This document shows, in pieces, positions 41,001 through 55,053 of a stretch of DNA of 64,000 nt. Numbering within the stretch: position 1 is the stretch's first letter; each line of letters begins with the position of its first letter. The notes below the pieces were generated by a model. The model was given only the letters and a program-made list of their open reading frames with translations. It was not told the origin of the DNA and did not search any database. Origin of the DNA: Hydra vulgaris (taxonomy: Eukaryota; Cnidaria; Hydrozoa; Anthoathecata; Hydridae); assembly GCF_038396675.1 (NCBI RefSeq), contig NC_088928.1, positions 54,093,501 to 54,157,500 of the forward strand, written 5' to 3'. The translations under genes and the position numbers were made by a program.

Positions 41001-44000
41001 AATTCACCCTTTAAAAAAAACAAAAACTTAATAATAAAATACTTTTAGCTTTGGTAATGAAACTGAATATTCAATAAAACAAATCTTGATACCTGGAGAA
41101 TCAAGTACAATAGATTTCAAGCTACTATCTAGTAAAAAAATATTTCAACACAAAAAATTAATTTTATGCTTCAAAACAAATAAAAGATGTGTAAAAAATG
41201 TGTTAAATTAATAATATTATAAGTAAATAAATTATTAAAAAAATAAATATATATGCTATTAATTTAAGTTTAAAAAATCATTGTTTTAAAAAAAATTTCA
41301 AAGAAAAAAAAAAAAAAAAACTTACTTGAAATGCCATTAACAACAAAAAAGTTTTTTATTAAAGCATCTTGAGGTTTAGACCATGGATCAGATGCAAAAA
41401 CCTTGACATTATCAAAACTTTGGGCTAAGTCATTAGGAACTGAAAAGATAACCTGTCCATTTATTTTAATTGAATAAATATAATCTTTGCTAATTAAAAC
41501 TTGACTAACTTCTATGTTTGACCATTTATTTAAACCAACCAGATTAGTTTCAGTTTGATTATTATTCCCTTTAATAGGAGCAATAATTTGAAGTTTTATC
41601 GCCATCAAATGATTTAAAGTTTCAAAGTCTCCATCATTATGAAACCAAATACCAAGAACTTCATCACCATGACTCGCATTATCAAGACCAGTAGTTAAAT
41701 GAATAACACTATGCAAACCAAAAGCAAAATAATGTGGATAAATATCAAATGAAATCAAGTATTCTTTTTCTAGAATTGGTATCGTAGCAACAATCATTTC
41801 TTTTTTTAATAGAATACTATTTTCTCTAACAATGTACTCTACAATACAATTTTTTTGATTAAAATGTGTTGAAAATAAATTAATTTTTTAAAAATAAAAG
41901 AAAGTCATTCTTTAAAAATATATATAGTTATAAACGCAATAAAAATTATTATTACCGACATTTCCATTAATAATCAGAAGGTCAGTAATTAAACCATTTT
42001 GAGCTTTTTGCCAAGGATCAGAAGCATATACTTTTAAGTTTTGGTAAACTCTTGCATAAGAATTCTCTATACTATATATGTTGGTTCTATTTAAATCAAC
42101 ATAAAACTTATATTTTTTATTTGACAAAGTTTGATATACTTTAATAGTAGACCATTCATCCAATTGAAGGGGTTTTGTTATAATAGAGTAGTTGTTGTAA
42201 ACACTTAATGTAGAATAAATAGATAGCACACCAGAGTCATCTTGGGAAAACCAAATACCCTGATTTTGGTTACCATAATTCCCAACATCCAATAATATAC
42301 AAAAAATACTTTTTAAACCTTTACTATATTTTCTTGGCTTAATATTAAACAACAAAGTGAATACTTTCATCAACACTTTGAGTGTTCCAAGAAATAAACC
42401 TTGGGTGATTGCAAACTCTTCTCTTCGGTAAATATAATCTAAATAAATGTTAATTAATTTCTCAATTCGAATTTATAATATAACATAAAAATATCTAATG
42501 ACAGGACTTTCTTTCAACAAAATATTTAATGAGACATTATCTATACTTTATACAAAAGGTGTTAACAAAGACATCTTAATCTCTCATTCCAATAGTTATG
42601 TGTGTTGAATCTTTAATTATATTAATTAATTTAGTTCTTAAATTGTTATTTTGTAATTAATATGTATGGTGTACCAGTTGTTATCTCTTTAATCCACTAC
42701 AGTATGTATATTAAATTAAATCAAGCTAAATCAAAGCTACAACTTTAGTATTCACATAGAAATGTATACAAAGTTACTATTATATCATAGAAACGTTTAT
42801 AAAGTTACAGATCAACATTTTGTAGTTTTAGAGTTATAGATAAAAAAATTTTAGTACAAATTATTAGGCCAAAAAAACATATACATCGACATTTTTCTGT
42901 TTTTTGGATGACTTGGATACATAACATTTGTTTCAAAGCTGTTACAAGCAATTGGGAAGATTGCAAATGTTTTTTCAACTTCTTCTCGACTTTTAATTTA
43001 AACAGCTGGAGCTACTACAATATTAAAGGTTGGTAAGGTAACTAAAACTATGCAACAAATGCTGATGCCAGATGCTATTGGTGTAGATTCATAAACCATG
43101 GCTCCAATGGTGTAGCTAATGTAACTTATGGTGGTACTTATATAGATTCTGATGGATGGGATCACTAAGAATCATTTTGAGATGACTGTGTTTCAAATGT
43201 GTTTGCAATTTGCAATTTTGATTTATCAATTTTATTGATGTTGAGTTTAAACAATGCACAATTTTTAATCCCAGTGACTGTTTTTGTGCAAGTAAAAACA
43301 TCATTAGAGTTGAAAGGTTTTGTCTAAAGTAAACTTGCAGCTTAAACAGCATTCTTTTGATAAATTGACAAACTTTGTCTCAGCATAAAACTGTTGAAGT
43401 TGCCAAACTCTTTGAGACAAATTTCTGTAAAATGTAAGACAAATAAGCTTGAAATAAGATTTATAGAAATGATAAAATAACCTGATAGTTAACACATGTT
43501 AACTATCCAATTATGACTAAATTATAAATACCTTCCTGGTATTTATAATTTAATTTATAATATAAACACCATCCTGGGGTACCATTGGTAAACAAATGAG
43601 TTTGACTTAAGTGTTACAAGTAGTTGGTCTCTAGTGTGATGATATCATTGTATGTTCTTCTAAATTCAATCCTAATTAAATAATATGATAAATGTATCTA
43701 TCGGAGTTAATTTTGCGGCAATCTTATGCTGTGTATTACACACCATAATTGTTTGCTACTGGTATTCTGAATGATTAAATAGTTTTATTGACTGAAAAAG
43801 TTTTAATTTGTACTTTGTACTAAAGCACGACTTGATCTTTGGTGTATGGCTTTTCTTTTTTCTTTATGTGCAAGTTTTTAGAGGCTCATTTTTATTTATA
43901 GATTTAATTATGATTGGTTTAAAACTTATACAAAAAGATTCCTTGGTCAGTTTAGATTTTTAATTAATTAATAAAAGCCCCTTTTACCAAGTTAACATTT

Positions 44001-55053: not shown

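What the first reader, a model, noticed from the sequence alone, without database searches (positions are those of the whole stretch)
41093..55053. Receptor kinase ectodomain built from a duplicated three-exon, all phase-1 cassette
Seen: exons A1, B1, micro1, A2, B2, micro2 and the linker all begin and end in phase 1. A1 resembles A2, B1 resembles B2, and the two 36-base microexons resemble each other. The simplest history is one ancestral module duplicated to A-B, then the whole A-B-micro cassette duplicated with its introns. Joining these modules to an FGFR/VEGFR/RET-like kinase is an architecture I cannot match to a named vertebrate receptor. This is the best candidate here for a little-described system, a lineage-specific receptor family with expandable ectodomains.
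Basis: partly seen in the sequence, partly recalled or inferred. Interest (0 to 1): 0.8.

Follow-up and report, generated by a model that had tools for sequence, protein, structure and literature searches.

The report
Hydra "Sweet Tooth"-type receptor kinase gene
The gene encodes a cell-surface receptor enzyme with four lectin-like modules outside the cell, matching a receptor type already described from the freshwater polyp Hydra in 2000, so the duplicated exon pattern is real but the receptor kind is not new.

Summary
On the minus strand, 15 exons join into one open frame of 1,122 codons. They encode four about 160-residue modules (A1, B1, A2, B2), two 36-base microexons, a linker, a transmembrane exon and a complete tyrosine kinase (Pfam E 2e-90) closest to RET and FGFR among solved structures. 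The eight borders from A1 to the transmembrane exon are phase 1; the seven after it are mixed. A1 groups with A2 and B1 with B2 (other topologies p-AU < 0.001), so cassette duplication is supported. The module is the 'sweet tooth' (SWT) domain of Hydra: 22 distinct SWT peptides printed by Bottger et al. 2012 (PMC3531485) fit the ectodomain collectively at z 11.9 and the kinase part at z -0.3. Hydra's receptor kinase Sweet Tooth is described as having four extracellular domains (PMC2680970). The predicted fold is a ConA-like beta-sandwich, already suggested for SWT proteins in the 2012 paper. Whether the gene is Sweet Tooth itself or a paralogue could not be tested.

The parts
54565..55053 (-). 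exon A1, first SWT-type module (phase 1-1); in-frame ATG at 55102 upstream may be the start codon and signal peptide
53553..54026 (-). exon B1, second module (phase 1-1)
49446..49481 (-). microexon 1, 36 bases (phase 1-1)
41956..42438 (-). exon A2, third module (phase 1-1)
41326..41838 (-). exon B2, fourth module (phase 1-1); best place for four of the five individually strong SWT peptides
41093..41128 (-). microexon 2, 36 bases (phase 1-1)
40165..40234 (-). decayed A-type module fragment, taken as a non-coding relic, not part of the protein
   Evidence: 73% to A1 over 70 bases; 82% to A2 over 49 bases; judged non-coding by eye on the sequence
39125..39154 (-). linker exon, 30 bases (phase 1-1)
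29623..29764 (-). transmembrane and juxtamembrane exon (phase 1-2); the membrane span is read from the sequence by eye
22968..23176 (-). kinase exon 1, glycine loop and VAVK
19511..19695 (-). kinase exon 2
16098..16217 (-). kinase exon 3, insert region
14549..14763 (-). kinase exon 4, [11 protein letters not shown], activation loop
14411..14451 (-). kinase exon 5
14233..14329 (-). kinase exon 6
13776..14076 (-). kinase exon 7, C-terminal tail and stop codon

Best explanation
This is a Hydra receptor tyrosine kinase of the Sweet Tooth kind: Sweet Tooth itself or a close paralogue. Four tandem SWT domains, each predicted to be a ConA-like beta-sandwich, form the ectodomain; one transmembrane helix leads to an active-looking RET/FGFR-like kinase. 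Shown by computation: gene structure as a model, module homology, duplication order, kinase motifs, match to published SWT peptides, predicted fold. Inferred: the modules bind a glycan or glycoprotein of the cuticle or cell surface (possibly the secreted two-domain SWT proteins), which clusters receptors, allows trans-phosphorylation of the activation-loop tyrosine that aligns with one in RET, and signals inward. The repeat arose by symmetric phase 1-1 exon duplication: A to A-B, then the A-B-micro cassette.
For: Unbroken 1,122-codon frame over 15 exons; kinase Pfam E 2.3e-90; RET 263 bits and FGFR 245-250 bits in PDB; glycine loop, [12 protein letters not shown] and DFG present; quartet test; SWT peptides: sum of best scores 557 against shuffled 346 (SD 18), kinase part z -0.3, and z 5.7 after dropping the 3 best peptides; VFASDPWYPSQDGSIK against [16 protein letters not shown], and GFNSVIHLTIGEDNSK against [16 protein letters not shown] in B2; Sweet Tooth described with four extracellular domains (PMC2680970 passage); SWT domain first found in a Hydra receptor kinase (PMC3531485, section 27 read); SWT proteins predicted beta-sandwich like legume lectins and pentraxin (passage), in agreement with the matches here.
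Against: The Sweet Tooth paper (Reidling 2000) is not held, so no residue-by-residue check. Taken one by one, only 5 of 22 peptides are reached by 10 or fewer of 1,000 shuffles. The species is inferred, not given. The literature calls Sweet Tooth domains C-type lectin-like, which these modules do not resemble (no Pfam lectin hit; 0-2 Cys each). No 5' end or transcript was verified. The structure models are of moderate confidence (pLDDT 65-70) and rest on four sequences.
Confidence: 0.86

Rival explanations
1. A distinct, undescribed SWT-domain receptor kinase, paralogous to Sweet Tooth, in Hydra or another hydrozoan; same mechanism, different ligand or tissue. (This is a share of the 0.86 given to the best explanation, not an addition to it.)
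For: Outside the conserved motifs the modules differ much from the published cuticle SWT peptides; exact identity to Sweet Tooth untested.
Against: Four extracellular domains plus kinase, as reported for Sweet Tooth; the passages seen name only one such Hydra receptor.
Confidence: 0.3
2. Two separate genes: a secreted SWT protein (A1 to micro2) and a kinase gene, wrongly joined across the 9.4 kb linker-to-transmembrane intron.
For: Secreted SWT-only proteins are common in Hydra (22 two-domain proteins, PMC3531485); long introns separate the parts. I did not search for a separate start or signal peptide in front of the transmembrane exon.
Against: B2, micro2 and the linker end in phase 1 and the transmembrane exon begins in phase 1, with no stop across the joins; the described Sweet Tooth architecture joins such domains to a kinase.
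Confidence: 0.06
3. A decayed pseudogene.
For: A neighbouring module fragment looks decayed.
Against: No stop within the joined frame of 15 exons; kinase motifs intact; dN/dS below 1 between copies: 0.374/0.898 for A1/A2 and 0.498/0.762 for B1/B2.
Confidence: 0.04

Closest known systems
Sweet Tooth, Hydra vulgaris receptor protein-tyrosine kinase (Reidling, Miller and Steele 2000; paper not held and not read, cited through PMC2680970 and PMC3531485)
   Same: Four extracellular domains of the SWT kind joined to a tyrosine kinase
   Different: Reported as C-type lectin-like; here predicted ConA-like with few cysteines. Sequence identity not tested
SWT cuticle proteins of Hydra (22 two-domain proteins, Bottger et al. 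2012, PMC3531485)
   Same: Same module by peptide comparison, with shared motifs such as FASDPW..QD..IK and SVIHLT.G.DN
   Different: Described as made of SWT domains only, found in the cuticle wash; no transmembrane or kinase part
RET and FGFR kinases
   Same: Kinase domain, aligned over nearly its whole length at 263 and 245-250 bits
   Different: Ectodomains of RET (cadherin-like) and FGFR (Ig) are unlike these modules (recalled)
[quoted passage not shown]
   Same: ConA-like lectin ectodomain joined to a kinase (recalled; the passages I saw of the review PMC7758398 concern C-type ones)
   Different: Ser/Thr-type plant kinases of independent origin (recalled)

Membership tests
Sweet Tooth receptor kinase | Four extracellular domains of one kind | tested here: met
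   description in PMC2680970
Sweet Tooth receptor kinase | Domains belong to the SWT family | tested here: met
   Peptide set z 11.9 against the ectodomain, -0.3 against the kinase part; 5 of 22 peptides individually strong. That the 2012 SWT domain is the Sweet Tooth domain rests on that paper's statement
Sweet Tooth receptor kinase | Transmembrane segment and tyrosine kinase in the same protein | tested here: met
   (gene model, no transcript; membrane span read by eye)
Sweet Tooth receptor kinase | Sequence identity to the deposited Sweet Tooth protein | not testable with these tools
   Paper not held; no eukaryote sequence collection offered; own-genome search not answered (last try)
C-type lectin-like domain | Match to a C-type lectin profile and conserved disulphide cysteines | tested here: not met
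   No Pfam lectin family for the four modules or the whole protein at E up to 1; 1, 2, 1 and 0 Cys in A1, B1, A2 and B2; the canonical cysteine need is recalled. The fold itself was not compared with a C-type lectin
ConA-like lectin/glucanase fold | Beta-sandwich jelly roll over the whole module | tested here: met
ConA-like lectin/glucanase fold | Carbohydrate or calcium binding | not testable with these tools
   No binding data; not inferred from fold
RET or FGFR subfamily | Kinase domain relationship | tested here: inconclusive
   Best whole-domain PDB matches RET then FGFR; no kinase tree made

The most novel reading that the evidence does not exclude
A second SWT-domain receptor kinase, distinct from Sweet Tooth, whose jelly-roll lectin ectodomain grows and shrinks by phase 1-1 cassette duplication and reads the animal's own SWT/glycan cuticle: an animal counterpart of plant lectin receptor kinases.
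Probability: 0.15. Interest if true: 0.45.

Novelty: already known. Interest (0 to 1): 0.15.

Why it matters
It gives the exon anatomy of a Sweet Tooth-type gene: the four modules arose by symmetric phase-1 exon and cassette duplication, and they look like ConA-type rather than C-type lectin domains. That supports the 2012 unpublished remark against the label carried since 2000 and points ligand searches at glycans of the Hydra cuticle. As a discovery it is modest: receptor type and domain family are in print.

Tried and rejected
Bacterial, archaeal or viral relatives of the module: profile-guided scans of genome contigs and viral contigs gave 180 and 174 pattern stretches and no confirmed relative. 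Profile libraries for the modules: Pfam only two matches below cut-off, Htt_bridge E 0.18 and ART-PolyVal E 0.026; NCBIfam only weak matches far below cut-offs; PHROGs one match for A1 at E 4.5e-4 and one for A2 at E 0.23, both of unknown function. PDB by sequence: none with the profile, four matches at E 0.45-0.71 for B2. C-type lectins are not named in the 50 rows shown in each, which by itself excludes nothing. The Pfam match Tox-PLDMTX in the joined protein (E 0.0014, below cut-off, residues 632-744, from the end of B2 to the juxtamembrane part) is taken as chance. The motif YASDPW is in no held paper as such. 5' exon search: a strict scan found none; a looser one kept 7 of 58 ATG-to-donor readings, of which two are the in-frame starts just upstream of A1 (their 'donor' lies inside A1 and means nothing); the others looked poor. 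The own genome could not be searched for further SWT receptors. Literature: searches; seen as passages only: PMC2680970, PMC3703292, PMC7758398, PMC4381721; seen only as a reference-list hit: PMC12549020, PMC5090036, PMC9589958, PMC8878817. The Hydra receptor kinase survey of Reddy et al. 2011 was seen only as a reference. One search timed out and crashed; the same test ran.

Full report
Observation. Reading the minus strand, I placed 15 exons by their AG and GT borders and joined them into one frame of 1,122 codons that ends at a stop at 13776. From A1 (55053) to the start of the transmembrane exon (29764) there are eight borders, all phase 1. The seven borders after it have phases 2, 1, 0, 0, 2, 1 and 2, so the phase-1 run is special to the ectodomain. 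The first of the eight borders is the assumed intron before A1; its phase follows from the frame. A1/A2 are 45-47% identical, B1/B2 39-40% and A/B pairs 25-31%. Micro1 at 49481-49446 is the second best of 52 open 36-base candidates, after micro2 itself, which was the reference. I found 15 exons, not 17.

Duplication order. With LG+G4 on the four modules, the tree that pairs A1 with A2 and B1 with B2 wins by 29 log units; the two others have p-AU 0.0008 and 0.0006, and bootstrap support is 100. It fits A to A-B, then duplication of the A-B-micro cassette. DNA similarity reaches about 15 bases beyond the exon borders on each side for A1/A2 (520 aligned bases for exons of 489 and 483); the 40-50 base intron flanks aligned with many gaps, so the introns themselves give little support. 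The 11 kb between B1 and A2 holds, besides micro1, open frames that look transposon-like by eye; the two of them that I tested gave no Pfam match. A 70-base stretch at 40234-40165 resembles an A-type module (73% to A1, and 82% to A2 over 49 bases), so a further partial copy seems to have existed there.

Kinase. Pfam PF07714 matches at E 2.3e-90. The best whole-domain PDB sequence matches are RET (263 bits) then FGFR1 and FGFR2 (245-250 bits in the 60 rows shown of 2,456); one EGFR construct ranks first by E-value, apparently because it holds two copies whose scores are summed. Glycine loop, [12 protein letters not shown] and DFG are present, and the activation-loop tyrosine lines up with one of RET in the alignment. 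Between copies, dN is below dS (0.374/0.898 for A1/A2 and 0.498/0.762 for B1/B2). The gene looks functional; no transcript was seen.

What the module is. Pfam has no family for it. In the held literature, Bottger et al. 2012 (PMC3531485; [quoted passage not shown] Placing all 22 peptides on the ectodomain gives a summed best score of 557 against 346 (SD 18) for shuffled peptides, z 11.9; the same on the kinase part gives z -0.3; without the three best peptides z is still 5.7. One by one, only 5 of 22 are reached by 10 or fewer of 1,000 shuffles; the other 17 are not significant alone, as may be expected of short peptides from divergent paralogues. The best are VFASDPWYPSQDGSIK against [16 protein letters not shown] and GFNSVIHLTIGEDNSK against [16 protein letters not shown], both in B2. 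So VKVYASDPW is an SWT signature.

The receptor. [quoted passage not shown] PMC3703292 (passages) names it among unique, organism-specific receptor kinases. Four SWT modules, a transmembrane exon and a tyrosine kinase is what the window holds. The original paper is not held, no eukaryote sequence collection is offered, and the own-genome search did not complete, so Sweet Tooth itself and a close paralogue cannot be told apart. The host being Hydra is inferred from the SWT match and is compatible with the 28.7% GC (Hydra's low GC is recalled).

Mechanism (inferred). Multivalent lectin-like ectodomain, ligand on glycans or glycoproteins of the cuticle or cell surface, receptor clustering, trans-phosphorylation, intracellular signalling. 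No step of ligand binding is shown.

Verdict. Correct and well-read observation; ordinary in the light of the literature. The history by phase-1 cassette duplication is a good small addition to what is known of this receptor kind.

Noticed in passing
window 40165-40234, minus strand: Decayed fragment resembling an A-type SWT module between micro2 and the linker exon; judged non-coding by eye (sequence).
   Followed up: partly
window 55084-55102, minus strand: ATG directly after a stop opens a short hydrophobic leader in frame with A1, a possible signal peptide that would make A1 the first coding exon.
   Followed up: partly
window 1215-1700, minus strand: hAT-type transposase C-terminal dimerisation region (Pfam E 1.7e-4).
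   Followed up: no
window 7358-8206 and 58486-59070, minus strand: Reverse transcriptase fragments (Pfam RVT_1), the second lying upstream of A1.
   Followed up: no
window 33948-34866, minus strand: Tc-type transposase pieces (HTH_Tnp_Tc3_2 and DDE_3) inside the linker-to-transmembrane intron.
   Followed up: no
window about 52860-53290: Tandem array of roughly 30-base AT-rich units in the B1 to micro1 intron, seen by eye.
   Followed up: no
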